35,137 bases of DNA from Solirubrobacterales bacterium. Lineage in GTDB: Bacteria > Actinomycetota > Thermoleophilia > Solirubrobacterales > Solirubrobacteraceae. The stretch spans positions 1-35,137 of the forward strand of contig JAFASQ010000334.1 in the NCBI GenBank assembly GCA_019244395.1. The letters run 5' to 3'. Under the pieces are notes generated by a model. It saw only the letters and a program-made list of their open reading frames with translations. It did no database searches and was not told where the DNA came from. This document shows positions 13,385 through 34,349 of this stretch, piece after piece. Position numbers and translations under genes: made by a program. Numbering within the stretch: position 1 is the stretch's first letter; each line of letters begins with the position of its first letter.

Positions 13385-14071
13385 GTGAGCGACGTTGCAA
13401 CCAGCTATGAGGCCCCGGCGATCAAGGCCTTATCGGGGAGTGTGGTCGAGATCAAGATCCCGGCGCCCGTTCAACCCAAGGGCGTAGGGGTCAACTATGT
13501 GACCTCGCAGGACAACAAGCCTCAGACGTACGCCAACAACATCTACGTGTGGAAGACGACGAGCAACAACGTCCCGTGGGGCACGACTCCCGACGGGAAC
13601 ACGGCTGTGGCGGCCGACACTCCGGTCAGCACGCAGTTCCTGTCCTTCCCGTTCCTCGTCCAGCAGGATTACATCGTAGGCTACGCCGTGGCCGCCGACC
13701 CCAATGCGGTGTGCTCGACGGTGTACATCCCGGGCGCGACCCAAAGCGACCCCAGCACGTATGTTACGAGCGACACCACGATCTCGATCAACTCGTGGGG
13801 GAATAACTACGTCCAGGTGAAGCTGACCGGCCTCGGAAACTACTCGCCCTCAGCGAACAAGAACTGGGTCGGTGTCTGGGAGCTTGATCACGTGCCGTAC
13901 TCGGGCGACCCGATCGCCAAGACGAACGTGGCGCTGACGTCGGCCCATGGCCTGATCTACATCGGGAACGTGCCTCTTACGATTGGTTCGACGTACTCGG
14001 TGGGGTACTTCATGGCCGCGTCGCCGGCCGGGCGGACCGCTTTGGCCTGCAGCGTAACGTTCAACACCTGA
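13385..14071 (+). CDS. 228-residue protein of two tandem beta domains, first gene of the giant-protein module
   Basis: A paralogue of the 252-residue protein at 10636-11394. Two ~105-residue halves each show the same skeleton: P-Q-T-Y-A-N-N-I-Y-V-W with DYIVGYAV and VCSTVYIP in the first, and NKNWVGVWELDHVPYSG with STYSVGYFMAASP and LACSVTFNT in the second. The run NWVGVW is shared between both paralogues, down to an 18-base match in DNA. No signal peptide or membrane segment is visible. It precedes the 1247-residue gene by 52 nt on the same strand, with a strong hairpin between. I do not know a function. A repeated small beta protein placed before two giants would fit a subunit or decorating component. 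Confidence 0.88.
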   Translation: MSDVATSYEAPAIKALSGSVVEIKIPAPVQPKGVGVNYVTSQDNKPQTYANNIYVWKTTSNNVPWGTTPDGNTAVAADTPVSTQFLSFPFLVQQDYIVGYAVAADPNAVCSTVYIPGATQSDPSTYVTSDTTISINSWGNNYVQVKLTGLGNYSPSANKNWVGVWELDHVPYSGDPIAKTNVALTSAHGLIYIGNVPLTIGSTYSVGYFMAASPAGRTALACSVTFNT

Positions 14072-14074
14072 ACG

Positions 14075-14091
14075 GGCGCGGCTGCCGCGCC
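14075..14091 (+). terminator. stem-loop between the 228- and 1247-residue genes
   Basis: GGCGCGG-CTG-CCGCGCC is a perfect 7-bp G/C stem with a 3-nt loop, starting 3 nt after the stop codon. No T-run follows. It may be a partial terminator, or an element that shields the 3' end of the small gene's mRNA so that the small protein is made in excess. Confidence 0.45.
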
Positions 14092-14123
14092 TATCGCTCC
14101 GGCGCGTCGATGGCGACCCGGGC

Positions 14124-17100
14124 ATGACCAGCTTCAGGCGGATCGGAACCTCGGCGCTCTATAGCGCGGTCTCGAACGCTGCGTCGGGCGGGTGGGGATT
14201 CGCCATCACCCGGACGCTGCCCGACGGGCAGGAACTTCCGGCGGGTCCGATCACGCTGGGCGACGCGCTGGCGAACCTGACGTGGCAAGGCAGCTTCATA
14301 TACGTGGCCGCGGGGGCGTTTCCGGGTTCTGATGGTAACCCGCAGCCGTTCCTCGACAAGCTCACGACGTTCATCCAGAACGCGTCGGTCAGTGGCCAGG
14401 GCGCGATCCTGTTCCTACCGGACGGGTCCGGCGACGAGCTCGACCCGCCGACGTTGGAAACGTACGTCCTGCTGAACCGCTCCAGCCAGAAGATCACGCT
14501 GAGCGGACCGGGGCTGAAGGTCGGCCTCACGGGCGTCTCCGGCATCCAGTTGCAGATCGACCCAAACGCCCAGCTGTCTGTTCCTCCGGAGGGCGATCGG
14601 ATCGACCTCGACCTCGACACGCCGGTCGCCACTCTCGGCGGTACGTTCCCGCCGGAGGTCAAGGCGCCACCGACCAACGGTGCGCAATTGCACGTCGGCG
14701 GCTCGTCGAGCGGGGCGCTGACGTTCTCGCTGATCGTCGTGCAGAGTTCGCTTTACAAGCCGACAAACTGGGGATTTCAATTCTTGATCCCCAGTGAGTC
14801 GGGGGGCGCTCGGACGTTCCCCAACGAGCCCAGGGGCGCTGGGAACGGAAACTCAACGCCGCTCGATTTCGTCGCCGCGTGGCTCCCGTTCGCCGACCGT
14901 GGCCCGCCGAACGCCGTCCTCGGGTTCACCGCGCAGGTGAATCTGGTCAATCCGCGCAACCACATCAAGGACGCGACGCGCACGGTCTTCATGTTCGACG
15001 GCACCGGTACCGACACCGCGCTCCCTTCCTTCTACCGCACCAACTACGGAAAGCAGGTCACGCTGACGCCGGTGACCGATGGGTCGGGCGAGCCGGCCGG
15101 GCTGGTCATCAACGACGGCTACGTGGCGACCCCCCAGCAGAACGGGTTCCGTCTCGCGCCGGCCGGCGACTTCGTGATGGCGATCCCGGGTGCCGAACCG
15201 AACGGGCCGTACAAGCTCCTCTGTGGGCTGTCAGGCACCGAGACGATCGACTTCCTCCCCGAGGTCGAAGGCAAGCAGCACGGCACGCGGCTGCGCTTTT
15301 GGGCCAACCAACCCGCCAACATCCCGCAGTTCCCCCTCAAGGCAGCGTCCCCAACCGGGCCGCCGATCGAGGCCAATCTGCATCTCTTCGACGACCGGTT
15401 CGAGACGTCATGGGTGTCGGTTGTCCCGCCGTCGACGGTCGTACCGCTGCCGACGGACCAGCAACCTCTCGCGCACTACGCCGCGGCACCGAAAGGTGCC
15501 GAGCTCTTCGGCGAGGGGACCGCCGCTCCCGAGGGTCTGCTGGGTCCGAAGGACCCGGGGGTCGGCGTCCCGGCCACGGTCGTGTTCCCAATGTTGCCCT
15601 TCGCGGGCTTCACCCCGCAGAACGGCGTCCAGGACGCCAGCGCCGACCAGTTGGAGCAGGTGGCCCGAGAGATCGTTAGCCCGACTCGGAAGGCCGAGAT
15701 CGCCAATTCGAAAGAGATCGTCACCGCGTCGTCGGCGCACATGAGCCTGTTTGCCACCACGGCCGCGGACGGCGATGGCGATGCGCTGGTCAGTACCACG
15801 ACGCCGACCGGGTTCATTACGCGGTACCGCGAGAGCGACGGCAGGTGGAAGCAGCTCCTACTCGCGCAGGTCGCCAGCGGCTCGGGCGTGACCAGGCAGA
15901 TGGGTTTCACGGGACTCGACGGCGAGCTTCAGTCGGCCTTCCAGACCAGCGACCAGTTCCTGGTCATCGTGAACAACGAGCACCTCGGACCGATCGTCCC
16001 GGCCTCGTCGCCGCAGTGGTTCATGCCTCCTGCGCCTCCGCCGCCCGTTACGACGCCCGGGTTCTACAACACGATCAACATCGGCGACTGGAACTTCGCC
16101 AGTAACACCGGATCCGCGAATGCGTACGGCGACTACCACAGCGTGATCATCGTGAAGGGCGTGAAGGGCAAGCTCCTCGACGTCGATCCAGTCAACGGTG
16201 AGGCGTTGCCGACGAGCCTCGTGCGCAGCCCCGACAAGTGGACGATGCGCGACGTCTTCGCCTCGCCGGACCCGCCGGATACCTCCGAGCTGGGCGCGGT
16301 GTCGAACTGGCTGGTCGACTACTGCCTGTCCGCCTACCGGAAGCGCGACGACCCCTACTTCCAGAACTTCGCCAAGATCATCCAGGACCCCAACTGGACG
16401 GGCGTGCTCATCCTGAAGGCGACGGTCGAGGACGTGCCGACCGAGCTGGCCGGCATCCTAGCCGGCGTCAAGGATCCGAGCGCCTTCTACGCCCATCACG
16501 TGGGCATCGAGATCGGCCAGATCGACGGCAAGAACGTCCAGCAGACCGACACGACCTCGATGTTCGGTCTCATCTACTACATCGATCCGGAGTACGACAG
16601 CAGTCAGGAACCGCACACCGTCGCGCCCCACGATCCCAACGCCCCGTACGACTTCACCCTTCTGACGCTCAAGGCGCTCTTCGAGAACTCGGCGATCAAG
16701 AAGTTCGACAGCCTCGCGCAGATGGTGCTGAACCGGATCTTCGGCAGCGCGGTGACGGAGATGGTCGACCTGAAGAGCGATGACCCGCAGGCGAACCTCT
16801 ACAACGCCGTGCTCCTCGAGGGTGGCGTTCAACGCAACGGCGATGCCGTGGTCTACAGCCTCGCCTCCCGCTGGCCGAACCGGTACTCGCTGGCGAATAA
16901 CGCCCTCCAAAGCGTCGAGGTCGATACCGCGCAGATGTCGACGAGGGACGCCGGCTCACAGAGCGGCAAGACCGTCTCCTGGATCGCCATGAGCGGGTTC
17001 ATGAACTTCGGGATCATCCCTGCGGTTTCGGATTCGAAAACGCCTCTGCCGGCGTTCGACATCTTCTCCTTCGGCTCGACCGATCCGGAGCACCCCGCGC

Positions 17101-17867
17101 TCCGTGCGGGTCTGAGCTTCGACGGTCTCGGCCTGTCGATCACTGTCCCTGCCAACGACCCTCAGCACCCCATCCTTGCGATGGTCGAAAGCGAGATTGC
17201 GTTTAATACATCGGCGAGTCACCCCCGCGACGAGAGCATCTTCAACAGCTTCCAGCTCGAGCTGCTCGGGCTCATTTCCGGCGATGCCAACGCCGCCAAG
17301 AGCGGGGACAAGAGCGACCCGGCGAGCCTCGGCTACCTCCCTGCGGTCACGCAGTACAACCTTCGCGGAGTCACCTCGGGCGCGGGCGGATGGCACGGGC
17401 TGAACTTCAAGCTGAACCTCGGGACACCCGGCGCGCTCGCTGGAAAGGTCAACCTCGATTCCAGCCTCCTCGTGGCGTGGGCTGATGACAGCGGCGCCTC
17501 GGAAGGCTTCGCCGCGTTCGTCGGGGTCCAGCTTCCCGGCGCCGGCACAGGTGGCGAGCTGTTCAGCCTCCAGACGGTGATCAAGCTGTCGGTCGGTCTC
17601 ATCCAGCTGATGTACGTGTCGCCCTCGACCGGCGGTGACGGGAAGACCGGCACAGGTGGATTCCTCCTGGTGCTCAACGAGATCGCGCTGAAGCTCCTCG
17701 GGCTGCTCAAGATCCCTCCGAGCGGCAACACGGCGTTCCTGCTGTTCGGCGATGCCGAGGCGGCCGACTCAGCCGGCCTCGGCTGGCTGGCGGTCTACAA
17801 CCAGGCCAAGAAGAAGCCGGCGGAATCGCGCGCCAAGCGGGAGCTCGCCCAGCTGGCGGAGAGCTGA
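14124..17867 (+). CDS. 1247-residue protein of unknown function, partner of the following giant
   Basis: I do not recognise a named domain. The composition is that of a large, mostly beta protein: many short alternating hydrophobic strands, few cysteines, proline-rich linkers (for example PPAPPPPVTTPG near 634-645). The N-terminus is polar with no signal peptide. A segment near 495-545 (VVFPMLPFAGFTPQNG, then an acidic helix ending SPTRKAEI) and the C-terminal ~90 residues (FLLVLNEIALKLLGLLKIPPSGNTAFLLFG) look like conserved core elements. The latter is a hydrophobic amphipathic helix, not a clear membrane span. The tail is lysine/arginine rich. Third-position G/C is very high throughout, with no frame break. 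The start has a weak ribosome site, so expression may depend on the gene before. Only 7 nt separate it from the 3928-residue gene, so the two are almost certainly cotranslated partners. Confidence 0.93.
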   Translation: MTSFRRIGTSALYSAVSNAASGGWGFAITRTLPDGQELPAGPITLGDALANLTWQGSFIYVAAGAFPGSDGNPQPFLDKLTTFIQNASVSGQGAILFLPDGSGDELDPPTLETYVLLNRSSQKITLSGPGLKVGLTGVSGIQLQIDPNAQLSVPPEGDRIDLDLDTPVATLGGTFPPEVKAPPTNGAQLHVGGSSSGALTFSLIVVQSSLYKPTNWGFQFLIPSESGGARTFPNEPRGAGNGNSTPLDFVAAWLPFADRGPPNAVLGFTAQVNLVNPRNHIKDATRTVFMFDGTGTDTALPSFYRTNYGKQVTLTPVTDGSGEPAGLVINDGYVATPQQNGFRLAPAGDFVMAIPGAEPNGPYKLLCGLSGTETIDFLPEVEGKQHGTRLRFWANQPANIPQFPLKAASPTGPPIEANLHLFDDRFETSWVSVVPPSTVVPLPTDQQPLAHYAAAPKGAELFGEGTAAPEGLLGPKDPGVGVPATVVFPMLPFAGFTPQNGVQDASADQLEQVAREIVSPTRKAEIANSKEIVTASSAHMSLFATTAADGDGDALVSTTTPTGFITRYRESDGRWKQLLLAQVASGSGVTRQMGFTGLDGELQSAFQTSDQFLVIVNNEHLGPIVPASSPQWFMPPAPPPPVTTPGFYNTINIGDWNFASNTGSANAYGDYHSVIIVKGVKGKLLDVDPVNGEALPTSLVRSPDKWTMRDVFASPDPPDTSELGAVSNWLVDYCLSAYRKRDDPYFQNFAKIIQDPNWTGVLILKATVEDVPTELAGILAGVKDPSAFYAHHVGIEIGQIDGKNVQQTDTTSMFGLIYYIDPEYDSSQEPHTVAPHDPNAPYDFTLLTLKALFENSAIKKFDSLAQMVLNRIFGSAVTEMVDLKSDDPQANLYNAVLLEGGVQRNGDAVVYSLASRWPNRYSLANNALQSVEVDTAQMSTRDAGSQSGKTVSWIAMSGFMNFGIIPAVSDSKTPLPAFDIFSFGSTDPEHPALRAGLSFDGLGLSITVPANDPQHPILAMVESEIAFNTSASHPRDESIFNSFQLELLGLISGDANAAKSGDKSDPASLGYLPAVTQYNLRGVTSGAGGWHGLNFKLNLGTPGALAGKVNLDSSLLVAWADDSGASEGFAAFVGVQLPGAGTGGELFSLQTVIKLSVGLIQLMYVSPSTGGDGKTGTGGFLLVLNEIALKLLGLLKIPPSGNTAFLLFGDAEAADSAGLGWLAVYNQAKKKPAESRAKRELAQLAES
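17858..17863 (+). promoter_or_regulatory. Shine-Dalgarno site supporting the TTG start of the giant gene
   Basis: GGAGAG sits 11 nt before the TTG at 17875, inside the last codons of the preceding gene. It supports starting the giant at this TTG and not at an ATG at 17752. The extra 41 residues from that ATG are an arginine/serine-rich shadow of the upstream gene. Confidence 0.5.
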
Positions 17868-17874
17868 TCACACC

Positions 17875-20800
17875 TTGGGATTCCTTGACGGCATCTTCGC
17901 CGCTCTCAGCTCGTCCACGAGCGATTTCACCGCCGAGGCGATCACCAAGCAGCTCAACGCTCTCAGAGCGCTGCTCGGCGATGGCCAGGCGGCCAACAGC
18001 ACCGTGCGGCTGTGGGTGGAGTCAGGCTCGAGCTACGGGCACCAGGCGTCGACAGTCAACGTCATGTACCGCATCGCGAGGCCAGCGGGCGCGGACGGCC
18101 TGAACCTGGGGTACACCGGGACCATCGAGATCTATTACGAGTCGGCGGACGACCTGCAGAAGCTCTACCAGCTGATCCCGCAGATGGCCGGCCAGCCTGA
18201 GCACGCGGTCGGCAGCGCGACGGTCAAGCTGATCCAGTACACGACCGCCCCCTCCACGGCGGTGAACTTCGGATTGACCGGTGGAGCCGGGAAGGACGCA
18301 AACTATCCCGCGAAGCTGAACGTCAACTACTTCCTCCGGCTCCAGCCATACAACTGGGGCGGCAGCGAGCAGATCCAGTTCAGGTCCGGGAATCCTGTCG
18401 ACCTCACCACGGTCGACGCCGTCGGCGCGGCGCGGTTCAAGCGCAGGCTCTACTACGTGGAGCAGTCAATGTACGCAGATCCGCCCTGGGATGCGCTCGC
18501 CGCCAACGCGACCCCGTACGAACAGGAAAAGCTGAAAACCGTTAGGTACCTCTTCGGCGATGCGACCCTCGCGGATTACCAGGTCCAGGCCTGCTACAGC
18601 ATCAAGACCGGCAGCCTGCGCTTCAACCAGAACACCGCATTCGGTGCGGCGGTCATCTGCGCGGCCGCGTTCGAGTGGCAGAAGAGGAAGGGCGCGCCGT
18701 ACAACAAGGCCAAGCCCGTCATCATCGTGAACTTCGATGAATTTGGTGAGGCGAACGACTCTTCCGAAGGCGATTTGCGCAAGGTGGCCGCGGGGGATTT
18801 GGCCAAGGATGAGCAGGGCTTCAGGTACAACATCGACAGTGGCGACCGCACGGCGATCGACAACTTCAAGCGCCGGTCGGCCTACTTCAAGGGCCTCGCG
18901 GTCGGCGGCCGCCTCCATTACCTGAACTATCCACAGACCCTCGTCGACGTGCAGACCGCGGTTACCGCCATCGCGAATCAGAAAGACGCCGTCCTGTTCG
19001 TCCAACTCGGCAGGAGCTTCCCGGCCGCCTTCTCGTACGCGCTGTTCAAGTCGGCGTTGCCGCCGATCTTCGAGGGGCAGAACACAGCGAACGACGCTGT
19101 GAACATCGGTCGTCCCTACATGCAGATCCCGGGGACGAAAGACACCGAGGAAACGAAGCTACGGATCTACCCGGCGGTCACCCTGTCGCAGTACTCCTCG
19201 CAAGAGGTGCCGCGCGCTCTGCTCATGGTCGCCGGCCAGGTGTCGCACTCGCCGATGGTATGGCCGACTGCCGCGAGCCAGGCACCGCCGCTCATCATCG
19301 GCCAGTACTACCAGCAATACACCGACGAGGTTCCGAACAACAACACGATCAACCTCTACTTCGCGAAGGTGAAGGAGTTCTTCGCCAGCCCGTCACAGGA
19401 CAAGCTGCTCCTCGCCCTCGCCTATCTCAACTCGCTACTGCCCGAGACGACGACGCTGATTGCCGTCGAGGCGTCCGCCAACCCGTTGGACGGGCTGTGG
19501 GACGAGATCCACGCTGCGGTGACGAAGGGCGGCCCGGTCGACCTGATCCCCGGCATCATGACCAAGGGCGCGATCCCGGGGTTCATCCAGAGCTTCCTCA
19601 AGGACTTCTCGGGCGGGCTGACGCTGACCGTCAGCTCGTTCGAACCACCCACCAAGCCCACTCGAGTCGAGAAGATCACCCTCACCGGATCGACGGACGC
19701 GTTCGCCAAGATCGGGGTCAAGAACGAGGTCTCGATCGTCTTCACCGCGCCGGACGACAAGTTGACGGCCGACTTCGCGTTCACCGCCGTCGAGAAGTGG
19801 AGCATGCCGGACGCGCCGTGGATGGCCTTCGAGAAACCGTTCATTGCTCTGACCGTGCCGGACGCCAGCCTGCCGGTGGCTGCGACCATCGGCGGCTACT
19901 ACCCGGCGCTCGAGCAAAAGGACCCGCCGATCGCTGCCAAGCTCGAGATCGCGCTCGGCGGCGCGGACGGGCGGTGGCCGGCCAGCATCACCTTCAGCCC
20001 GCCGAGCTACCCGGGAATCGCCACGGCATACCAGTTGGCCACCGGGTTTAACATCGTCAAGAGCCTGCCGCCGCCGTTCAACGTCGCCGCGGACCTGGGC
20101 ATCAGCAACATCGAGGTCGACTACGACTACGCTAACTCGACCGTCGATTCCGTCGCCGTGGTCGCCCAGTCCAACACGCCCGGGCTCACGCTCATCGGCA
20201 ACCTGAAGCTCGACAACCTTGTCGTGACCGCTGCCGTGCTGAATCCTACGACGACCCGCGAACTGGCGCTCGGAGCGTCCGCCGAGTTCGGGATCGGCAC
20301 CGAGAAGAACCCGTCCGTCGTCGCGATCTCGTTTAACTATCCCGACATCGTGCTCCAGGGCACGTTGAAGTCCGGGACCCCGACCTTCACCGAGTTCATC
20401 GCGACGTTCGTTCCCGCGCTGGAGGGTGTGTCGCTCCCACATGAACCGAAGCTCGACAAGTTCGACTTCATGTACAACCAGCCTAATGACTACCTGTCAG
20501 TGTCGACTGAGCTGACGATGCCGGGGTGGGATTTCACCTTCCCCCTGTTCCAGGATCCACTGTTCTCGCTCAACACGGTCGCGTTCTCGGTCACCCGCGA
20601 CAAAGGCACGAACACGGGCAGCATCACCGCCCACACGACGCTGCTGCCCAAGAGCCAGGCGCCGATCGGGGTCGACATCGGCGGCGAGTACCTTGCCAAC
20701 AAGGACCTGAAATTCTTCGCCAGGACCACCACCGAGGTCGACATCGACACGCTCGTCGGCGAGTACCTCGGCCAGGGATGGATTCCAAGCGGGGTGACAC

Positions 20801-23800
20801 TGCCGAAGCTCAAGGACGTCGGCGTCACGCTCGTGTGGGGCTCGAACGGCGGCGGCGCCGCCTCGGCGAAGTCGTTCGAATTCACCGCGAAGACGGCGAC
20901 GGCTTGGGAGCCGATCGACGCGCTGGGCAGCGACCTTTCGGTGACCGCCGAACTGAAGCTCGGCTACAAGTCGGGCAAAACGCACGCGGCGCTGGATTCG
21001 GCCGCCGCGGTTGCCCGGCGGAACGGTCCGGTGATCGAAGCCGCAGTCACGGGCGACCCGGGCCTCGCGCTCGTCCCCACCGCCGACGAGGCCGGCGCGT
21101 ACGGCACGCTTTCTGCCGACGTCACGCTGTGGTTCATCCACCTGAAGGTCGAGCTCGACTTCGACCCCAAGGTGAAGAAGGTGTGCGTCACGTGGACTGA
21201 CGTCGGCCTGAAGGCGTGCCTCGAGACCAAGCAGGGCGAGGAGATCGCCACCTTCACGCTCGAGAACCAGACCATCGGGAGCATCGTCGAGAAGTTCGTG
21301 TCGTGGGCAACGGGCACCGAGTTCGGCCTGATGGCGCCGTTCAGCGTGCTCAACGACATCAGCCTCAGCGGACTGAAGATCACCTACAACTTCACCAAGA
21401 AGAAGGTCGACTTCACCGTCGACATCGGCCCGATCGACCTCGGCCTGTTCAAGATCACGGGCATCACGCTGGCCTACAACCCGGACGGCAACGACGACGG
21501 GAAGTCGAACAACAAGGTGGAGATCACGGTCAACGGGTCGTTCGCCTGGCAGGACGGCGACTCGTTGAAGTGGGAGCCCGATGATCCTTCGACGACGCCG
21601 GCGCCGCCGGGTGGGGGCAACAAGTATTTCGACCTGCGGCTCCTTGCGCTCGGCCAGCACGTCACCGTGCCGGGCCTTCTCGAGGAGACGAACGTCGAGA
21701 AGGTGATCGGCGACCTCGAGGTGCTCGACATCCCCAAGCCGCCCGAGATCCCGATCGGGGGCCCCAATCAGCCGACGTTCGACGCCACTAGCTCGTGGTT
21801 CGTGGCGTTCGACTTCGGCGTTCTCAAGGTCGAGGAGAAGCCCAACGACGGCGGTGACGGTGGTGACGGCGGCGGTGACGGGGGTGACGGCGCTGGGCCG
21901 GCCGACTTGCTCCCGGCGGCCGCCGGCGGGCCGACGCCGCCTCCTCAGTACTTCATCTCGCTGGCCGTCGTTTTCAACGACCCGCGTTTGTACGCGCTGC
22001 GGGTCGGGCTCGAAGGTCCGATGGCGAAGGTGTTCGCCGGGCTCGACTTCCAGATCATGTACCAGCAGGTCTCGGAGAACGTCGGCCGGTATTCGGCCCA
22101 GATCGCGCTCCCGGCGATCATGCGGAAGTTCCAGATCGGCGTCGCCTCGGTCACCCTGCCCATCTTCGCGATCGAGGTGTACACCAACGGCGACTTCCAA
22201 GTCGACCTTGGCTTCCCCTGGAAGGAGGACTTCTCCCGGTCGTTCTTGATCGAGGTCCAGGCCGGACCGTTTCCCGTGACGGGTGCGGCTGGGTTCTACT
22301 TCGGCAAGCTCAGCAGCGCGACGACCGACAAGGTTCCCCAGCACACGCGACCCGGCTGGTTCAACCCCGTCATCGTCTTCGGCTTCGGGGCGCAGGTCGG
22401 GCTTGGGAAGTCGATCGAGGCCGGCGTCCTTCGCGCCGGTTTCAGCGTCACGGTGTTCGGGATCATTGAGGGAGTCATCGCACGGTGGCAGCCGTACGGC
22501 GAGGTGACGACGGGCGGCGACAAGAACTCGCTCCAGGACGGGTACTACTTTGCGCTGACCGGCACCTTCGGACTACAGGGCCGCCTCTACGGATCGATCG
22601 ACTTCGCGATCATCTCCGCGGAGCTCGACGTCCGGATCTCGCTCTACGTGCGGATCACGTTCGCGTCCTACGAGCCGATCCCGATCACCGCCAACGCATC
22701 GGTGTCGGTGACGCTGACCGTGAAGATCGACCTCGGTCTCTTCAAGATCTCCATTCACCTGAGCTTCAAGGCGGCGGTCGAGGTCACGTTTGTCCTCGAC
22801 AACCCGATGGGGGACCCGAGCAAGGCCCCGTGGGCGCCGGTCGCCGGCGCGCTCATGGCCGCGTCGGCCCCGGAGCGGCTGTCCGCCCGCGGTCTCGCAA
22901 TGGCATTCGTGCGCGACGCGGCCGACGCCAATGAGTTCACCCCGGTGTGGACGAACCTCCAGCCGGGGACGCAGCTCCAGATGAAGGGCTGGGTCGTCCC
23001 CGTGCTCACGGTGGCCGGCGACGTCGCCAAGCAGCCCAGCGACCAGAAGATCTGCTATGTCCTCAATTTCTTCGTCGACGGCGGCGAAGCACCGGTCCAC
23101 ACCGGCGACCACCTGACCGAAATGGGCGCCGCGCCCGGCGATGCCCACGTCGTGTCCGCGTCGCAGGTGGCCCAGGTCGCCCTCGAGCGCGCTCGCAGCG
23201 TGCCGAGCGTGGGCGACTTCACCAACACGTTCGAGGACCTCGCCATCCGTGTCCTCCAGTGGGTTATCGCCGCCGGTCAGACGGGTCCGCGGACCCCCGA
23301 CGCGGTCGACGAACTAGTCGTGTCGGACGAGTTCCTCGCGGACGCGCTGAGCTACCTCTCGGGCGCGACGACGCCGACGCCGGTCCCGGGAACCGCCATC
23401 GGGGAGTTCCTGAAGGACCAGACCAAGTTCCTCTTCGCGCTCGAGCAGGACGCGCAGCCGGGCGGGCAGCCCGTTCCGGCCGTCTTCTTCCCAGCGGCAC
23501 CGGGGATCGCGCTTGATGTGCCCGCATTCGGCGGGGAAGGGCCATTCAGCTACTCGTTCGGGGGCTACAACAGCAGCTCGACCGACTACCTGTCCAAGCT
23601 CAATGACTATTTCAACAAGCTCAAGGTCCAGGTCCAGCAGGAGGAGGGCACGAAGCCGCTGGCGGCCGCCGAGGCCGTGACCGACGACGGTCCTTCGATC
23701 GCTACGTACGTCTTCGGCGACTACTTCGCGATGATCGGCCGACTGACGACCCAGGCCATGCGTGACGGCCTGCGCAACTTCAAGCTGCTCCTCGGCGACT

Positions 23801-26800
23801 ACAAGGGCCAGACGGTGCAGGCGATCGTCGACGCCATCAACCGGAACGGCAAGCTCACCGGTGCCGACGAGTACACGTGCGGCGAGCTGTTCGCCGCCAA
23901 CCAGAAGCATCCGCTCAATCCCGCCGCACGGGCGGGGAGTCCGGGCATCGCGATTGCCACCATGACGTGGCGGTCACCCGGCGGGAAGAGCTTCACCGAC
24001 ATCGCAACGGCGCCCGTGTTCGCCCGTGGCTTCGACGCGATCACGCTTGGGCTTGCGAATGCCGCCTCGGCCACCATCGTCGCCGCCGGCGTGCAGATCA
24101 TCGCCCCCGGCAACGCCGAGTACCGGACGCAGAGCGGGGACAGCCTGGAGACGATCGCAAAAGCACTCGGGTTTGTCGACGCGGGCAAGCAGCCCGACGT
24201 CGCCAAGATGCTGCGCGCCGTGCCGGCAATGCTGACGAGCCCGGACCTCCTCGCGCCGCAGTCGATCCTCGCCGTCCCCCAGTTCCGCCACACCGTCGCC
24301 GACGGGGACACGCTCCAGACTGTCGCGGCGCAGTACGGAATCAGCCTCGACGCACTGGCCAACGCTAACGGCGACGTCACGAATCTCTTCCTCGACGATG
24401 CGAGCAACCTCAACCTCGACGTGCCGCACCTCCCGCAGTATCAGGTCGGGCTGCTCATCGACGAGATGAAGCGCACGCTCGCCCTCCAGCACATGGGTGC
24501 GATGGCATCGCGTTACTACCTCCACGGGCTCCGGCTGCCCACGAAGTTCGCGACCGGCGGCCTGACGCCGAAGGCGGACGGGCTGTTCGTAAAGGCGGGC
24601 GGCTCGTATCCGGACGATCTCGGTCTGTTTGCCCTCACCGGGCAGGCTTTCCCGCTCGGCGACATCCCGGATCCATCGAACCCGAACAACGCCAAGTACC
24701 AGTTCACGGTCAAAGGAGCGAACGAGGCGTGGCTGAGTCTCGGCGCCGAGGGCAACACGAGCGTGACGTTCACGCTCTCCAAGAGCGAGGACTACCAGCG
24801 CTACTACGGGGTCAAGATGGTCGCCGCGTCGTTCCTCGACACCGAGTCCAGCGATGTTCAGCCGATCGCCGTCGCAGGCATCAAGCCCCGACGGTACCCG
24901 CTGTCGACAGAGATCGCGTGGCAGCCGGCAGTCGACGTCGTCCTCCCCGCGCAGCCATCGGCGCCCTCGAACCCCAAGCCAAGCCTCTGGTCGCTGCCGG
25001 ACGAGCTGATCAGCACCCCCCACGGCGGCCCGGTGTACCCCACGGTGAAGCCGCTTCTCGCCCGCTCCGACCCGGCGACCGGCGTTACCGTCGACGAGGC
25101 GGTCGCAAACTTCGGGTTCGGCACACTGGTCACCTTCACGGTGAAGAAGCTCGCAGGCGCGAGCGAGGGTGGTGTGACCCAGCGGACCTACGAAATCATC
25201 GGCGCGCCGGAGAGCGAGATCACGCTGCTCGAACGGCTTCTCGATCAGCTGACCGACGATGCGTCGACCTTCGACCAGGTGAACCTCTTCTACCGGCCGA
25301 GCTCGACGGGCAGCGACGCGAACGGCTGGCAATCCGACGACCCCGCCTCGAGCCTCATGGGCATCACGCAGACCAACCTGTCGACCGAGACCCGCCCGCC
25401 GGTCAGCATCGCAATGCTCGAGGCCTTAGCCCCCAAGCCCCACCCGAACCTGATCGGGGCGCCCAACGAGTTTCTGCGGTTGCTGTGGGAGGCGAGCATC
25501 ACCCGCCAGGGCGGCTTCTACCTCGGTTACACCACCGAGATCGGCGGCCCCGGCCCCCTCAAGGGTTTGCCGGAGCATGCGTTCAACGATCGCGGCGAGG
25601 CGGAGGTCGCGGTCTTGGCGATCTTCACGACGGGCTCGGACGGTGGACAGGCGCTTCGCAATTTCATGAACGTCGCCGTCACCAACGAGGCATTCGACCT
25701 CAGCCACGCGGCGCTCGTGGCCGAGGCCGTGCCGATGAGCGTTGCCGCCTCCCGCGACTTCGCAGCGACCGACAGCCTCTCGTCGTACGCGGCCTCCTAC
25801 TACACCAGCGCCGGAGTCCTCGCCGAAGCCAACGCGTCGGTCGACTTCCGCGCAGGAGTGAACGTGACGGTCGTCGGCGGCCTGTACCAGGTCCCGCCGA
25901 ACCCTACCTCCTCGCCGACCCGGCAGGACCCCGGGGCGGATCTCACGCTGATCGCAGCGCACTTCGGCACGACACCGGCCGCCATCCGCGCGGTCAACAT
26001 CGGGCAGCTGACCGATACGCTAGCCCCGCTCACGGCGATCAAGCTGCCGACCGTCGCGGTTCCGTCCGCCGGCCAGAGCCTCAAGAAGCTGGCCGACTAC
26101 TTCGCCATTCCGGTGCCCGAGGTCGCAGCGGCCAATCTCGACGTCGAGGGGCTCTATCCGGCTGCACCGCTCACGGTGAACACCGGGCCGGCGAGCCTCG
26201 CCCCGACCGTTCGCCGCGGTGTTGCGGGGCTGCAGCTCCAGCGTGTCGCGCCGCAGGTCCCGGACACCCCCACCGGTGACTGGGCGCTCGAATACCTTCG
26301 CCAGAACTTCAGCCTCCTCGGCTACCGGGTGGCCACGAACAACGGCAACGACTACTTCCCGCAGAGCGCCTGGGGCCTTCCGAGCGGGCCGATCGATCCC
26401 GACGCGACGCCCGGCGGCGACAAGATCCAGGCACCAAAGGCGATGGTCGCCGGCGACCCCTGGAACTTCGCCTTCTCGGTCCCCTACGCGTCGGTCCTCG
26501 CCGCCGGGAAGGACACGGTGAACCCGTACGCGGGCGTCGGCGGCATCCTCCAGTTCGAGCTCGCGTGGCTCGACATCTTCGGCAACCGGATCCTGAGCGA
26601 GCTGGCCAACCCGGCGCCGGCTCCGACAGCCCCGCGCCAGCGCCCGCCGCAGCTCCTCGGCTACACCGACCGGCTGATGGGCATCGGCCAATGGGCTGCC
26701 GTCGCCAACGCGTACCGGGTCGTGCTGGACAGCACGACCCGCGCGCCGAGCCTCCTCCTCCAGCTCGACTTCGATGCCAGCTCGTATCAGGAGGCCGCCG

Positions 26801-29661
26801 CGGCGATCGGCGGGAACGACCCCGCAGCGGCGCAGGCCGGGAAACACACGATCGCACAGGGGATCGCTGCCTACACCCTGATCACCGAACAGCTCGCCGA
26901 CCCGTCTGGCGTGACGATCGAGCTCTCAACATCGGCCACGCCCACGGCGACCTGGACCCTGCCCGACGCACCTCGGATGGGCGCGCCGGCGAGCCTCCGA
27001 GCCTGGGCCGAAACGATCCTGGCCTACCTCCAAGCCTTGGAAACCAACCCAAAAACGCCGCCGCCCGCCCCATACGAGTCGGCGGTCCAGCTCGATGCCG
27101 GCGCCATCAACACCGACGAGATCTTCAAGCTCGAGACGCGACTAACGGTCCGGCGGCAGAAACAGCTCGTGGCGGGTGAGCTGGCGACCGTCGACGGCGT
27201 TGCGGAGGCGTCGACCGCGATCGCCCCGTTCACCGGGACACTGACAAGTGGAAACGGGGGGCCGCCGCAGCGCAGCCTCACCGCCTTCGCCACGGACTTC
27301 AAGGACGCGTTCGCGTCGCTCGACGGCATCGAGCTCCGGATCGCCACCGGCGCGGACCGCACGCAGTTCATCGGTACCGGCACGTCGCCCGTGTGGGTCG
27401 TCCAGCTCGGCAAAAAAGGCTCCGGCAAGCCGATCTCGTTCACGATCACCGATGCCGGCAGCCCGACGGTGTACGCACCGCGACCGATTTCCAACGTCTT
27501 GGCATCGCGGGCCACGACGCCGATCATCCAGTACACCACCGGCTCGGTGATCAAGCTCGACGGGCCCTATGTCGACCGGTCGTTCACCTCGATCGACCTC
27601 GACAAGTGGATGGCGACCACGCTCACGTTCATCGACGAGCTGTTCACCCCGAAGTACACGATGGCCGCCGACATCCTGCGCCGGAACATCGCCAACGTCC
27701 CGCCCGACGACGGCGCATGGCCCGATGCCCTCGAGCTACTCGTCAATGCGAAGAAGAAACTCGCCGACAACCTGCGATCGGCGATGATCCCGGTGTACAA
27801 GGGCGAGTCCGCGAACGCCCAGCAGCTCGCCGACATCCGCGAGGCCTTCTACCAGACGATGCTGGCCAGGCTCGGCGGGTTCTACGGCGTCGCGGCCGGG
27901 ATCCAGTTCACTGCCGACGTCAAGGCGGCGATCAGGCTCGAGCCAGACGCGACCAAGGTCCCGCGGGTGTTCGGTGACATGGTGATGAACGGCACGAACT
28001 CGAACAACGGCACGATGATCTCCATCTCGTCGCCGAAGCTCGACCTCGCGTTCGGCGCCTCCAAGAGCGGCGTGATACCTCCCAGCCCCTATTTGAGCTC
28101 GCTGGTGAGCACCCCCTCGGTCGACACGGGGAGGGTCTCGCTGAACCTCGACTACAAGGGGCAGTACATCGAGCACGACATCGGCCGGCTCGCGGGCATC
28201 CAGGGCTACGAACCGTCGACGTGGCTGAGCTTCGTCGACATCGGCGGTAGCGACGACGCCAACCCGCTGTGCGCGGAGCTCGGCGGGTTCGACGTACCGA
28301 TCGTGCTCCGCGAGTTCCCGGCGATGCCCATGCTGGTCAACCAGGACGAGGTCGCGCAGATCACCTCCTCATGCCACCAGCCGATCACCCTCGAGGCCGC
28401 GGCCTCATCGGCCACCTCGCTCCTCGCTGGGATGCAGTGCGTCCGCACCGGGAACTACGACCCGCTGGCCGCCGCAGCCCGCTGGCACTACTCGTTCACC
28501 TACTCCATGCAGGTCCACCGCCAGCAGGACGAGATCCACGGGAAGGTCAACTTCAACGTCGCGGGTGAACGCGGCGTGATGACCATGGCGGACGCCGGGC
28601 GGGACATGTTCGACAACCTCGCGCAGTTCACACAGGTGTACCCGCAGGTGCGGACCGATCTCAACTCGTACCTGGTGCCGATCGACGTCGACACCACCGA
28701 CCCGACGCAGCTGCGAAACGCGCAGACCGCGCTCGAGTCGGCCGCGGCCATGATCGACTGGCTTGGCACCAGCCCGCCCGGCCCCGGCGACGCCGGTGGC
28801 TTTGTAAGGTCGACCCAGGTAGGGCCGGTTGAGTTCACGATCTCGGAGGGCAATAGGCCGATTGGCGGCGTCGATGCGCTCACCATCACGGTCGAGCTGA
28901 CCGCTCAGCTCCCGCCGCGGGTAGGTCCCCCGTTCGTCGAGATCGCTGGATACAGCTGTGAACGGCAACCAGACAGCGGCGGACTGACCAGTGTCTTTGC
29001 CTATAAGTCCGACGTCGACGGCCAGTACCTCACCGCCTCGGTGGGCATGAATATCCCCGCCCGGACATTCGTCCTCCCCGACCTCGACATCCTCGAGCGC
29101 CAGGACGCGCAGGCCGAGGTGTACATCACGCGCAACGCCGACCTGGTGCCCGGCAAGACGATCGCCGATCCCCTCGTTTACATGACGCCCACGGTGTCCT
29201 TCGACCAGCCGCTGCATCCCACGCTGGTCGTCGACGACCCGATCAACCTGGCGACCATCTTCTCAACCGGCCCGAACAACCCGGTGCAGCGCTCACTCGA
29301 CTGCCAGCTCGGGTTGCTGTACGACGCGCTCTTCGCGAACGCCGGGACCGACGACGTCACGTTGCAGGCGAGCCTGTACTACGAGTACGAGATCAACTCC
29401 GAGATTTCGAAGGTCCGTCTCCCTGTCTACCTGTTGCCCCCGACGCGCACCCAGCTGCGCCAAGGTGGTTCCGGGACGCCACTGGCCGACGTGATCACCC
29501 TGCAGGTCGCCGGATGGACCGGGTGGTTCGGTACGAACACGCCCGTGACGACCGGCGGATCGCTCGTCGTCGATCTGACAGTGATGTCGGATCTGACGGC
29601 GCGACCGATGCCGATTCTGCACCTGGCCAATCTGTACGTACCGTACGCGGAACTGGGCTGA
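17875..29661 (+). CDS. 3928-residue giant LysM-containing protein, unknown function
   Basis: A single unbroken frame. Residues ~1-525 look like a globular mixed domain (contains KPVIIVNFDEFGEA) that I do not recognise. Residues ~560-1320 are a long run of alternating-hydrophobicity beta strands. A Gly/Asp-rich linker (GGDGGDGGGDGGDGAG) is near 1324-1341. Residues ~1345-1660 are another beta-rich tract with hydrophobic runs such as VTLTVKIDLGLFKISIHL. Degenerate LysM-like motifs follow: about 1975-2080 (weak), then two clear ones at ~2083-2190 (YRTQSGDSLETIAKALG and FRHTVADGDTLQTVAAQYG). A second LysM-like pair lies at ~2680-2772 (LTLIAAHFGTTPAAIRAVN and SLKKLADYFAIPVPEVAAAN). The C-terminal ~1100 residues are mixed, ending in beta strands. 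There is no signal peptide, sorting motif or toxin catalytic motif that I can see. LysM binds N-acetylglucosamine polymers (peptidoglycan, chitin). Placing it mid-protein suggests a scaffold. Function is unknown. Confidence 0.92.
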   Translation: MGFLDGIFAALSSSTSDFTAEAITKQLNALRALLGDGQAANSTVRLWVESGSSYGHQASTVNVMYRIARPAGADGLNLGYTGTIEIYYESADDLQKLYQLIPQMAGQPEHAVGSATVKLIQYTTAPSTAVNFGLTGGAGKDANYPAKLNVNYFLRLQPYNWGGSEQIQFRSGNPVDLTTVDAVGAARFKRRLYYVEQSMYADPPWDALAANATPYEQEKLKTVRYLFGDATLADYQVQACYSIKTGSLRFNQNTAFGAAVICAAAFEWQKRKGAPYNKAKPVIIVNFDEFGEANDSSEGDLRKVAAGDLAKDEQGFRYNIDSGDRTAIDNFKRRSAYFKGLAVGGRLHYLNYPQTLVDVQTAVTAIANQKDAVLFVQLGRSFPAAFSYALFKSALPPIFEGQNTANDAVNIGRPYMQIPGTKDTEETKLRIYPAVTLSQYSSQEVPRALLMVAGQVSHSPMVWPTAASQAPPLIIGQYYQQYTDEVPNNNTINLYFAKVKEFFASPSQDKLLLALAYLNSLLPETTTLIAVEASANPLDGLWDEIHAAVTKGGPVDLIPGIMTKGAIPGFIQSFLKDFSGGLTLTVSSFEPPTKPTRVEKITLTGSTDAFAKIGVKNEVSIVFTAPDDKLTADFAFTAVEKWSMPDAPWMAFEKPFIALTVPDASLPVAATIGGYYPALEQKDPPIAAKLEIALGGADGRWPASITFSPPSYPGIATAYQLATGFNIVKSLPPPFNVAADLGISNIEVDYDYANSTVDSVAVVAQSNTPGLTLIGNLKLDNLVVTAAVLNPTTTRELALGASAEFGIGTEKNPSVVAISFNYPDIVLQGTLKSGTPTFTEFIATFVPALEGVSLPHEPKLDKFDFMYNQPNDYLSVSTELTMPGWDFTFPLFQDPLFSLNTVAFSVTRDKGTNTGSITAHTTLLPKSQAPIGVDIGGEYLANKDLKFFARTTTEVDIDTLVGEYLGQGWIPSGVTLPKLKDVGVTLVWGSNGGGAASAKSFEFTAKTATAWEPIDALGSDLSVTAELKLGYKSGKTHAALDSAAAVARRNGPVIEAAVTGDPGLALVPTADEAGAYGTLSADVTLWFIHLKVELDFDPKVKKVCVTWTDVGLKACLETKQGEEIATFTLENQTIGSIVEKFVSWATGTEFGLMAPFSVLNDISLSGLKITYNFTKKKVDFTVDIGPIDLGLFKITGITLAYNPDGNDDGKSNNKVEITVNGSFAWQDGDSLKWEPDDPSTTPAPPGGGNKYFDLRLLALGQHVTVPGLLEETNVEKVIGDLEVLDIPKPPEIPIGGPNQPTFDATSSWFVAFDFGVLKVEEKPNDGGDGGDGGGDGGDGAGPADLLPAAAGGPTPPPQYFISLAVVFNDPRLYALRVGLEGPMAKVFAGLDFQIMYQQVSENVGRYSAQIALPAIMRKFQIGVASVTLPIFAIEVYTNGDFQVDLGFPWKEDFSRSFLIEVQAGPFPVTGAAGFYFGKLSSATTDKVPQHTRPGWFNPVIVFGFGAQVGLGKSIEAGVLRAGFSVTVFGIIEGVIARWQPYGEVTTGGDKNSLQDGYYFALTGTFGLQGRLYGSIDFAIISAELDVRISLYVRITFASYEPIPITANASVSVTLTVKIDLGLFKISIHLSFKAAVEVTFVLDNPMGDPSKAPWAPVAGALMAASAPERLSARGLAMAFVRDAADANEFTPVWTNLQPGTQLQMKGWVVPVLTVAGDVAKQPSDQKICYVLNFFVDGGEAPVHTGDHLTEMGAAPGDAHVVSASQVAQVALERARSVPSVGDFTNTFEDLAIRVLQWVIAAGQTGPRTPDAVDELVVSDEFLADALSYLSGATTPTPVPGTAIGEFLKDQTKFLFALEQDAQPGGQPVPAVFFPAAPGIALDVPAFGGEGPFSYSFGGYNSSSTDYLSKLNDYFNKLKVQVQQEEGTKPLAAAEAVTDDGPSIATYVFGDYFAMIGRLTTQAMRDGLRNFKLLLGDYKGQTVQAIVDAINRNGKLTGADEYTCGELFAANQKHPLNPAARAGSPGIAIATMTWRSPGGKSFTDIATAPVFARGFDAITLGLANAASATIVAAGVQIIAPGNAEYRTQSGDSLETIAKALGFVDAGKQPDVAKMLRAVPAMLTSPDLLAPQSILAVPQFRHTVADGDTLQTVAAQYGISLDALANANGDVTNLFLDDASNLNLDVPHLPQYQVGLLIDEMKRTLALQHMGAMASRYYLHGLRLPTKFATGGLTPKADGLFVKAGGSYPDDLGLFALTGQAFPLGDIPDPSNPNNAKYQFTVKGANEAWLSLGAEGNTSVTFTLSKSEDYQRYYGVKMVAASFLDTESSDVQPIAVAGIKPRRYPLSTEIAWQPAVDVVLPAQPSAPSNPKPSLWSLPDELISTPHGGPVYPTVKPLLARSDPATGVTVDEAVANFGFGTLVTFTVKKLAGASEGGVTQRTYEIIGAPESEITLLERLLDQLTDDASTFDQVNLFYRPSSTGSDANGWQSDDPASSLMGITQTNLSTETRPPVSIAMLEALAPKPHPNLIGAPNEFLRLLWEASITRQGGFYLGYTTEIGGPGPLKGLPEHAFNDRGEAEVAVLAIFTTGSDGGQALRNFMNVAVTNEAFDLSHAALVAEAVPMSVAASRDFAATDSLSSYAASYYTSAGVLAEANASVDFRAGVNVTVVGGLYQVPPNPTSSPTRQDPGADLTLIAAHFGTTPAAIRAVNIGQLTDTLAPLTAIKLPTVAVPSAGQSLKKLADYFAIPVPEVAAANLDVEGLYPAAPLTVNTGPASLAPTVRRGVAGLQLQRVAPQVPDTPTGDWALEYLRQNFSLLGYRVATNNGNDYFPQSAWGLPSGPIDPDATPGGDKIQAPKAMVAGDPWNFAFSVPYASVLAAGKDTVNPYAGVGGILQFELAWLDIFGNRILSELANPAPAPTAPRQRPPQLLGYTDRLMGIGQWAAVANAYRVVLDSTTRAPSLLLQLDFDASSYQEAAAAIGGNDPAAAQAGKHTIAQGIAAYTLITEQLADPSGVTIELSTSATPTATWTLPDAPRMGAPASLRAWAETILAYLQALETNPKTPPPAPYESAVQLDAGAINTDEIFKLETRLTVRRQKQLVAGELATVDGVAEASTAIAPFTGTLTSGNGGPPQRSLTAFATDFKDAFASLDGIELRIATGADRTQFIGTGTSPVWVVQLGKKGSGKPISFTITDAGSPTVYAPRPISNVLASRATTPIIQYTTGSVIKLDGPYVDRSFTSIDLDKWMATTLTFIDELFTPKYTMAADILRRNIANVPPDDGAWPDALELLVNAKKKLADNLRSAMIPVYKGESANAQQLADIREAFYQTMLARLGGFYGVAAGIQFTADVKAAIRLEPDATKVPRVFGDMVMNGTNSNNGTMISISSPKLDLAFGASKSGVIPPSPYLSSLVSTPSVDTGRVSLNLDYKGQYIEHDIGRLAGIQGYEPSTWLSFVDIGGSDDANPLCAELGGFDVPIVLREFPAMPMLVNQDEVAQITSSCHQPITLEAAASSATSLLAGMQCVRTGNYDPLAAAARWHYSFTYSMQVHRQQDEIHGKVNFNVAGERGVMTMADAGRDMFDNLAQFTQVYPQVRTDLNSYLVPIDVDTTDPTQLRNAQTALESAAAMIDWLGTSPPGPGDAGGFVRSTQVGPVEFTISEGNRPIGGVDALTITVELTAQLPPRVGPPFVEIAGYSCERQPDSGGLTSVFAYKSDVDGQYLTASVGMNIPARTFVLPDLDILERQDAQAEVYITRNADLVPGKTIADPLVYMTPTVSFDQPLHPTLVVDDPINLATIFSTGPNNPVQRSLDCQLGLLYDALFANAGTDDVTLQASLYYEYEINSEISKVRLPVYLLPPTRTQLRQGGSGTPLADVITLQVAGWTGWFGTNTPVTTGGSLVVDLTVMSDLTARPMPILHLANLYVPYAELG
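21846..21898 (+). repeat. low-complexity Gly-Asp linker tract
   Basis: Short imperfect repeats of GGTGACGGC-type units encode GGDGGDGGGDGGDG. They separate two beta-rich parts of the giant protein. The tract is likely a flexible hinge and a possible slippage hotspot. The period is not the nonapeptide of RTX calcium-binding repeats. Confidence 0.6.
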
Positions 29662-31420: not shown

Positions 31421-31444
31421 CCTCAGACTCGACCCCGCCCCGTT

Positions 31445-32980: not shown

Positions 32981-33028
32981 CTCCCGCCACCGCGGCAGCA
33001 CGGCGACGAGCAGCACCGTACGCTCAAC

Positions 33029-34228: not shown

Positions 34229-34236
34229 ACAACAAT

Positions 34237-34242
34237 CTCCTT
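34237..34242 (-). promoter_or_regulatory. Shine-Dalgarno site fixing the start of the binding lipoprotein
   Basis: AAGGAG on the minus strand, 8 nt before GTG 34228. An ATG at 34195 (starting MKLTLRL) has no such site but would also keep the lipobox. Confidence 0.7.
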
Positions 34243-34349
34243 CAGCTTGGGAGTCCGGTCCCCGACAACCAGGTGACGTAGTCGACGTCGGCCTACCGAC
34301 GTTGAATTCCCAGGGCACGTCCTCCCACACCCCTCACACGACGCTAGCT

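What the first reader, a model, noticed from the sequence alone, without database searches (positions are those of the whole stretch)
13385..29661. Undescribed three-gene module: small double-beta protein, 1247-residue and 3928-residue partners
Three plus-strand genes, the last two only 7 nt apart, encode a small repeated beta protein and two giants with no domain I can name except LysM-like repeats. Together they use 16 kb, a heavy coding investment, and all frames are intact with strong codon bias, so the module is under selection. None has a signal peptide. The pattern (small abundant subunit first, then a large partner, then a LysM giant) fits a large assembled particle or surface fibre. 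The assembly idea is inference.
Basis: partly seen in the sequence, partly recalled or inferred. Interest (0 to 1): 0.8.

Follow-up and report, generated by a model that had tools for sequence, protein, structure and literature searches.

The report
Giant protein module with swappable enzyme
Two giant proteins and small partner proteins of unknown kind are inherited together in scattered bacteria and an archaeal genus, and the spot between the giants holds different enzyme-like proteins in different lineages, which suggests a shared machine that carries exchangeable enzymes.

Summary
The genes are real: A2 (228 aa), B (1247 aa) and C (3928 aa, TTG start 7 nt after B). A second A paralogue (A1, 10636-11394) was missed. 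Apart from LysM in C, none has a convincing match in Pfam, NCBIfam, PADLOC or PHROGs. The module is not private: C's core found 116 loci in a genome scan; the 88 compared span 11 phylum-level groups including Methanosarcina. B is present in all 83 loci with enough upstream DNA. In 298 genomes of one order, B occurs in exactly the 7 with a strong C match (one was the chosen centre; without it p 1e-12). B and C are fused in L070. In relatives, A2, B and C are under purifying selection. The B|C junction is a slot: here a GT-B glycosyltransferase-like domain of C (model pLDDT 87; best PDB match EarP), elsewhere a DNase-I-like or metallo-beta-lactamase-like gene. C's core has long, strongly amphipathic beta strands. 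Best reading (0.40): B and C co-assemble into a membrane-active scaffold carrying an interchangeable enzyme, possibly into other cells. Assembly is well supported, payload moderately, delivery inferred. Lipid machine, surface fibre and defence remain open. No description was found in limited searches.

The parts
10636..11394 (+).
   Evidence: Iterated HMM from A2 finds it at E 7e-50; 36 of 45 loci with a listed A gene have two or three
13385..14071 (+). A2: small beta protein (228 aa), GTG start after GGAGG
   Evidence: ORF, start context; among 42 A proteins only five single-member Pfam hits, best E 0.008
14124..17867 (+). B: 1247 aa, no known family
   Evidence: homologues in 86 of 90 loci by iterated HMM
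17875..29661 (+). C: 3928 aa giant, TTG start 7 nt after B
   Evidence: relatives by its core
17875..19494 (+). D1: C aa 1-540, GT-B glycosyltransferase-like fold; occupies the exchangeable slot; separate gene in L040 and L041
   Evidence: AF2 model of aa 1-560, pLDDT 87.2, pTM 0.86; Foldseek best EarP E 5e-5 prob 1.00; separate ORFs
19495..21924 (+). C aa 541-1350: long beta-rich region with an internal repeat (aa 1105-1228 resembles a unit near aa 680-810)
   Evidence: E 2.6e-20; model mb7c30d744e0f of aa 501-1700, pLDDT 76.7, pTM 0.46
21952..22854 (+). C core, aa 1360-1660: most conserved part (consensus share 0.60-0.69 in the four 60-residue blocks from aa 1381 to 1620)
22543..22797 (+). 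Four long amphipathic beta strands, aa 1557-1641, strongest beta moment in C
24289..24372 (+). LysM domain (C aa 2139-2166)
   Evidence: Pfam PF01476 E 2e-11
25732..26052 (+). Second stretch resembling the LysM-containing region (C aa 2620-2726)
   Evidence: profile match E 1.2e-12
26575..29658 (+). C aa 2901-3928: conserved C-terminus, not a variable tip
   Evidence: consensus share 0.23-0.52 per 60-residue block, against 0.17-0.34 in D1

Best explanation
A1, A2, B and C are one co-inherited system. B and C assemble (supported) into a very large beta-rich scaffold. The slot at the B|C junction carries an enzyme that differs between lineages: a GT-B glycosyltransferase-like domain (as here), a DNase-I-like protein, or a metallo-beta-lactamase-like protein (fold classes supported; activity not tested). 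The amphipathic beta core of C acts at or in a membrane (inferred), LysM binds cell-wall glycan and A proteins serve as adaptor or docking subunits (inferred). The most likely purpose is delivery of the slot enzyme to other cells, released without a classical signal (inferred; the weakest step).
For: Co-inheritance: 83/83 loci, 82 distinct; the same 7 of 72,556 plasmid records for B and for both halves of C, an eighth record (A. lipoferum) with a match to the N-terminal half of C and a diverged B; B in exactly the 7 genomes with a strong core match among 298, one of them the chosen centre, with 8 of 8 B places within 5 kb of a core (p without the centre 1e-12). Fusion of full B to the C core in L070; in G565 B and core lie in the same open frame of 3190 aa. 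C is split in other genomes. Slot: D1 in 55 of 90 loci, EEP in 15 (14 distinct), MBL in 3, pairs of small proteins in 7. EEP motifs WN, GDFN and S(D/N)H present in 14/14, MBL HxxxDH, GD and HHG in 3/3. EEP profile (11 rows) nearest DNase I (E 1.5e-4), MnuA nuclease in 3 of 11; L063 MBL nearest ComEC/Rec2 (E 0.0013). Membrane: amphipathic strands; Foldseek best hits are mostly beta-barrel proteins and ApoB100, with TM about 0.1.
Against: No immunity gene and no secretion or lysis gene was seen to recur next to the module in what I scanned. Slot types mostly follow clades (5 changes for 5 states on 79 of 88 tree rows, least possible 4), so there is no fast shuffling as in polymorphic toxins. D1-EarP kinship is not supported by sequence (hhalign probability 0.7%; the PDB profile search lists only weak viral capsid matches). 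Ten of 90 loci were not assigned to a slot type (L080 of these aligned over D1). L007's and L009's MBL assignment rests on motifs and, for L009, weak PADLOC matches; L009 had no PDB match. The core model has pTM 0.46, and the barrel matches may reflect generic amphipathic beta. Three of the eight B matches span one TAA each. No target is known.
Confidence: 0.4

Rival explanations
1. A lipid- or glycolipid-handling machine: the amphipathic beta region of C forms a lipid-binding groove or belt, and the slot enzyme modifies a lipid or glycan head group.
For: Strong one-sided beta amphipathicity; ApoB100 and LptD among the Foldseek hits; GT-B-like fold of D1. EEP, MBL and GT-B superfamilies all have lipid-modifying members (recalled).
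Against: The EEP profile is nearer DNase I than sphingomyelinase C (E 1.5e-4 against 0.028) and MnuA nuclease matches 3 of 11; L063 MBL is nearest ComEC/Rec2. Structural matches of the core are weak (TM about 0.1).
Confidence: 0.2
2. A surface fibre, adhesin or matrix: B and C are structural, LysM anchors to the wall, and the slot domain is a minor accessory.
For: LysM; beta-rich architecture; signal-like A copies in 16 of 36 multi-A loci; LamG domains beside B and C in Nostoc; collagen-like Gly-X-Y repeat proteins beside the module in six loci.
Against: By a simple test 83 of 84 B proteins have no signal-like N-terminus, and in the 16 loci with a signal-like A there is also an A without one; enzyme-like proteins with motifs intact in the slot.
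Confidence: 0.15
3. An intracellular anti-phage defence system with interchangeable nuclease or glycosyltransferase effectors.
For: Patchy presence (no other genome of 246 in the window's phylum), plasmids, cross-phylum tree, swappable nuclease-like effectors; the Tistrella MBL slot protein's best PADLOC matches are the defence proteins RTasMBL (E 2.4e-5) and LmuA (1e-4).
Against: No PADLOC hit for A1, A2, B, C or one EEP protein; LysM and signal-like A copies point outward; 12-kb giant genes would be unusual for defence (recalled).
Confidence: 0.12

Closest known systems
Polymorphic toxin systems (PMC3482391: abstract start and passages from a term search only)
   Same: Common scaffold, exchangeable enzymatic domain; the passages mention giant proteins and LysM adhesion domains
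   Different: Here the exchangeable part is at the N-terminus of C or a separate gene before it, C's C-terminus is conserved, no immunity gene was seen to recur, and slot change is slow
Tc (ABC) toxin complexes (recalled)
   Same: Several large proteins with an enzymatic part; environmental bacteria (recalled)
   Different: No Tc-family domain found (Pfam); the modelled part of C is mostly beta with short helices; enzyme position differs
Extracellular contractile injection systems (PMC8213781 and PMC11297309: search listing with abstract start only)
   Same: Environmental bacteria and archaea; toxin delivery would be the shared purpose if delivery is true here
   Different: No sheath match among the window proteins scanned; 3 of 7 module genomes of one order have no detected sheath
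EarP protein-arginine rhamnosyltransferase
   Same: Closest PDB fold to D1
   Different: 8-10% identity in the structural alignments, no significant profile match, fused to a giant

Membership tests
Polymorphic toxin system | Variable toxin domain at the C-terminus of a conserved protein (recalled) | tested here: not met
   C's C-terminus is conserved; variation is at the N-terminus or in a separate gene
Polymorphic toxin system | Adjacent immunity gene (recalled) | tested here: inconclusive
   No recurring immunity-like neighbour recognised; 104 of 168 candidate flank proteins scanned, no Pfam family in more than 3; an immunity protein of unknown type could be missed
Tc toxin complex | TcA, TcB and TcC domains | tested here: not met
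   No such Pfam hit in A2, B or C of the window or in 42 A, 39 B and 10 C rows scanned one by one
eCIS or other contractile injection | Sheath gene in the cluster | tested here: not met
   Not among Pfam hits of the 10 window proteins scanned; not among the 25 families listed of 125 in the flank scan
eCIS or other contractile injection | Contractile system elsewhere in the same genome | tested here: inconclusive
   Sheath family in 10 of 12 chosen module genomes, 9 over cut-off, the window's own genome among them (C441, E 4e-10); 3 of 14 control genomes. In 298 genomes: 4 of 7 with and 64 of 291 without the module, p 0.05; over the cut-off 2 of 7 and 29 of 291, p 0.16; without the chosen centre 3 of 6, p 0.13
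EarP family (PF10093) | Sequence homology to EarP | tested here: not met
   No EarP Pfam hit for C up to E 1; hhalign probability 0.7% against four EarP rows
GT-B glycosyltransferase fold | Fold matching known GT-B structures | tested here: met
   Model pLDDT 87.2; the seven PDB matches at E <= 0.001 are EarP and glycogen synthase chains; TM only 0.25-0.41 by query, up to 0.55 by target
GT-B glycosyltransferase fold | Catalytic activity | not testable with these tools
   Needs biochemistry
EEP nuclease (slot variant elsewhere) | Conserved WN, GDFN and SDH motifs (recalled) | tested here: met
   14 of 14 proteins, three of them with SNH; profile match to DNase I

The most novel reading that the evidence does not exclude
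An unrecognised class of giant delivery machine shared by bacteria and archaea, built from three new protein families, with a membrane-inserting beta core and an interchangeable glycosyltransferase or nuclease warhead.
Probability: 0.3. Interest if true: 0.92.

Novelty: categorically new. Interest (0 to 1): 0.77.

Why it matters
A 16-kb module with a recurring gene order in many phyla, including an archaeal genus, under purifying selection and without a named family in the libraries searched, is a sizeable gap in gene catalogues. Its exchangeable enzyme slot makes function testable, since several named carriers come from culture collections (for example Chitinophaga filiformis DSM 527). If it delivers enzymes it would be a new kind of delivery system; if it handles lipid it would be a new kind of lipid machine.

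Tried and rejected
Led nowhere: B in GenBank phages (no match). Viral contigs: 1 locus of 91 pattern matches (L091). First genome scan with B alone: 41 pattern matches, no relative. PDB profile search with A: only weak matches, mainly antibody heavy chains, from E 0.003, read as generic Ig-like; with B: none. hhalign of B vs C and A vs B or C: no relation, so A, B and C are treated as three families. Paper searches: no description of this system found; only term searches in an open-access library.

Considered and rejected: chance ORFs; a lineage-private curiosity; prophage genes. Transfer by phage was not tested. eCIS in trans is left open. Strong statements on slot shuffling were dropped after the tree count.

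Cautions: the 'C1' domain (aa 1-880) mixes D1 with beta repeats; D1 was later taken as aa 1-540. L006 and L088 are the same Nostoc locus, so 90 loci are 89 distinct. My notebook says 89 loci examined; the count is 90. Genes were called by a greedy ORF script that can pick shadow ORFs (f4 is probably that). The genome scan kept 80 of 116 loci. In one search, 9 of 298 genomes matched the core; two (G430, G515) are weak matches in frames of 157 and 92 aa and I left them out of the 7. The centre G361 of that sample was chosen because it carries the module. L080 is counted outside the 55 D1 loci, though it aligned over D1. The tree warns of long branches, and 11 of its 88 rows are in no group. One search translated an ORF between B and C of G029 that looks like an out-of-frame reading; the slot of G029 was not identified.

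Full report
Observation. The three ORFs are present as stated. C starts at TTG 17875, seven bases after B stops, and A2 at GTG 13385 behind GGAGG. Third-position G+C is 0.86-0.89 in A2, B and C. An iterated HMM from A2 finds a second A at 10636-11394, E 7e-50. Between A1 and A2 lies a GH64 gene on the minus strand; it has no relative among the genes called in the other loci.

No known family. Pfam and NCBIfam give LysM (and LysM-like models) for C and nothing for A2 and B. Scanning 42 A, 39 B and 10 C rows one by one adds only LysM models, a few Ig-like and scattered weak or single-member hits. PADLOC gives nothing for A1, A2, B and C, PHROGs only a weak endolysin match in the LysM region of C. 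PDB profile searches give LysM proteins and weak viral capsid matches for C, nothing for B, and weak matches, mainly antibody heavy chains, for A. Profile comparisons show no relation among A, B and C.

Spread. B hits 7 of 72,556 plasmid records, from four phyla; the same seven match both halves of C, and an eighth, A. lipoferum, has a C relative with a diverged B. With the conserved core of C (alignment A3, five rows) a scan of 84,980 species genomes gave 235 pattern matches, of which 116 encode relatives; the best 80 were kept. They include Alphaproteobacteria, Chromobacterium, Chitinophaga, Aquimarina, cyanobacteria, Clostridium, Actinomycetota and Methanosarcina. One of 91 viral-contig matches was a relative. 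In a tree of 88 cores (77 rows in 11 phylum-level groups, 11 in none), the groups need 18 changes (least possible 10; shuffled mean 36.7). The Methanosarcina pair joins eight Pseudomonadota (99/97), and the window joins an alphaproteobacterial contig (97/91); several long branches make details unsure. Among 246 genomes of the window's phylum only the window's own has it; among 61 relatives (the window's genome included) two have B, the other being G029, which also carries C. Horizontal transfer is the simplest reading, but the window is a whole 35-kb contig of a draft genome with 4% contamination, so misbinning is not excluded.

Co-inheritance. Of 90 loci (89 distinct), 83 have at least 7.5 kb upstream of the core and all 83 have B; of seven shorter ones three have B and four do not, and those four are cut by contig ends (ranges). 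Further test: in 298 genomes of the order of L027's host (the host, G361, is the chosen centre and one of the 298), the core model hits nine; two are weak hits in short frames, seven are strong. B hits exactly those seven genomes, at eight places, all within 5 kb of a core. Chance of such overlap is 2.6e-14, or 1.1e-12 with the centre left out. In L070 full-length B (aa 42-1261 of the frame) and the C core and tail are one open frame of 3467 aa, 3437 from its first start; in G565 B and core lie in the same frame of 3190 aa. C is split into two ORFs in several genomes. This is strong evidence for physical association, though no interaction was measured.

A proteins. A is found in 46 of 90 loci; of 45 loci with a listed A gene, 36 have two or three. 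By a simple hydrophobicity test, 16 of these 36 have at least one A with a signal-like N-terminus and one without, 20 have none, and B is signal-like in 1 of 84. In EEP-type Bacteroidota without A, a pair of small proteins shows the same pattern in the examples read. In four loci without A (L068, L069, L080, L084) a collagen-like Gly-X-Y repeat protein lies upstream of B, and in L079 and L081 a relative lies downstream of C. The meaning is unknown.

The slot. Between B and C, or as the N-terminus of C, lies an exchangeable element. D1 (C aa 1-540) is present in 55 of 90 loci, and as a separate gene in L040 and L041. Its model has mean pLDDT 87.2 and pTM 0.86, and Foldseek puts EarP first (E 5e-5, probability 1.00; TM by target 0.40-0.55 for the top EarP chains), then glycogen synthases: a GT-B-like fold. 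Sequence kinship with EarP is not supported. In 15 loci (14 distinct) the slot gene is an endonuclease/exonuclease/phosphatase-like protein with WN, GDFN and S(D/N)H present in 14 of 14; the nearest solved structure to an 11-row profile is DNase I (E 1.5e-4), with sphingomyelinase C far weaker (0.028); MnuA nuclease matches 3 of 11. In three loci it is a metallo-beta-lactamase-like protein with motifs intact: L063 (Pfam E 5e-5, nearest ComEC/Rec2), L009 (weak PADLOC matches to defence MBL proteins, no PDB match) and L007 (by motif only). Seven loci have pairs of small proteins there. Ten are unassigned, cut or without a slot. On the tree five slot states, set for 79 of 88 rows, need five changes, least possible four: exchange is real but slow. 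In three Chitinophaga pairs D1 changes faster than the rest of C (omega 0.17-0.20 against 0.01-0.10), in the Chromobacterium pair slightly, in the Aquimarina and three Pseudovibrio pairs not; one pair was not computable.

The core. C aa 1360-1660 is the most conserved part. The model (aa 501-1700, pLDDT 76.7, pTM 0.46) is mostly beta, with strands of 18-23 residues in the core. Beta amphipathicity is the highest of C at aa 1551-1650, 44-66% of windows above the 99% null. Foldseek lists S-layer and outer-membrane barrels, the T9SS translocon, LptD and ApoB100 among others, the top ones with TM about 0.1. So a membrane or lipid role is likely as a class, but no fold is established.

Selection. 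Omega is 0.054-0.166 for B and C in six close pairs and 0.042-0.053 for A2 in two; one EEP pair reaches 0.47, another 0.11.

Surroundings. Apart from slot and A-like families, few neighbour families recur: the collagen-like f2 in six loci and sensor or regulator proteins (f3) in five; others lie mostly in near relatives. Among 104 flank proteins (of 168 candidates) the commonest Pfam families occur three times. The contractile sheath family occurs in 10 of 12 chosen carriers, including the window's own genome on another contig, against 3 of 14 control genomes. In the order sample it is 4 of 7 against 64 of 291 (p 0.05), or 2 of 7 against 29 of 291 over the cut-off (p 0.16), and 3 of 6 (p 0.13) without the centre: inconclusive.

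Interpretation. Shown: co-inheritance, recurring order, fusion, purifying selection in relatives, slot exchange, fold classes. Inferred: assembly, enzyme activity, membrane action, delivery. My odds: assembly of B with C about 0.85, slot enzyme as working payload about 0.6, delivery into other cells about 0.4. The lipid, fibre and defence rivals stand as given.

Novelty. I found no description in eight term searches of an open-access paper library; of two papers I saw passages only. No library of predicted cellular structures and no eukaryotic genomes were available, so unnamed relatives elsewhere are possible.

Noticed in passing
11520-12677 (-): GH64 beta-1,3-glucanase gene sits between the two A genes in the window; no homologue among genes called in the other loci.
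   Followed up: partly
1068-8393 (-): 2441-aa protein with at least ten bacterial Ig/cadherin-like repeats and a weak beta-helix match, with a long overlapping ORF (2685-6176) on the other strand.
   Followed up: no
30374-34330 (-): ABC transporter genes: permease, ATPase and periplasmic binding protein, probably for a sugar (recalled pattern).
   Followed up: no
L068 1233-2495, L069 901-2445, L080 3-662, L084 1236-2483, L079 17267-19192, L081 17270-19402: Collagen-like Gly-X-Y repeat proteins next to the module, upstream of B in four loci and downstream of C in two.
   Followed up: partly
L047 1439-2192, L064 1394-2163: Pair of small proteins upstream of B, one with and one without a signal-like N-terminus, repeating the A1/A2 pattern.
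   Followed up: partly
L063 6170-7531: Metallo-beta-lactamase-like slot protein with a signal-peptide-like N-terminus.
   Followed up: no
L071 5098-6228 and L083 5209-6282: Extra 358-377-aa protein between B and C with a GGH...LPIC motif, beside a highly diverged D1 (12-13% identity to the window's).
   Followed up: no
L009 10954-12699: Hint-domain protein upstream of the Tistrella module.
   Followed up: no
L091: Module on a contig filed as viral in IMG/VR; whether it is truly viral was not checked.
   Followed up: no
G000:C441:1539-2057: The window's own draft genome holds a contractile sheath match (E 4e-10) on another contig.
   Followed up: no
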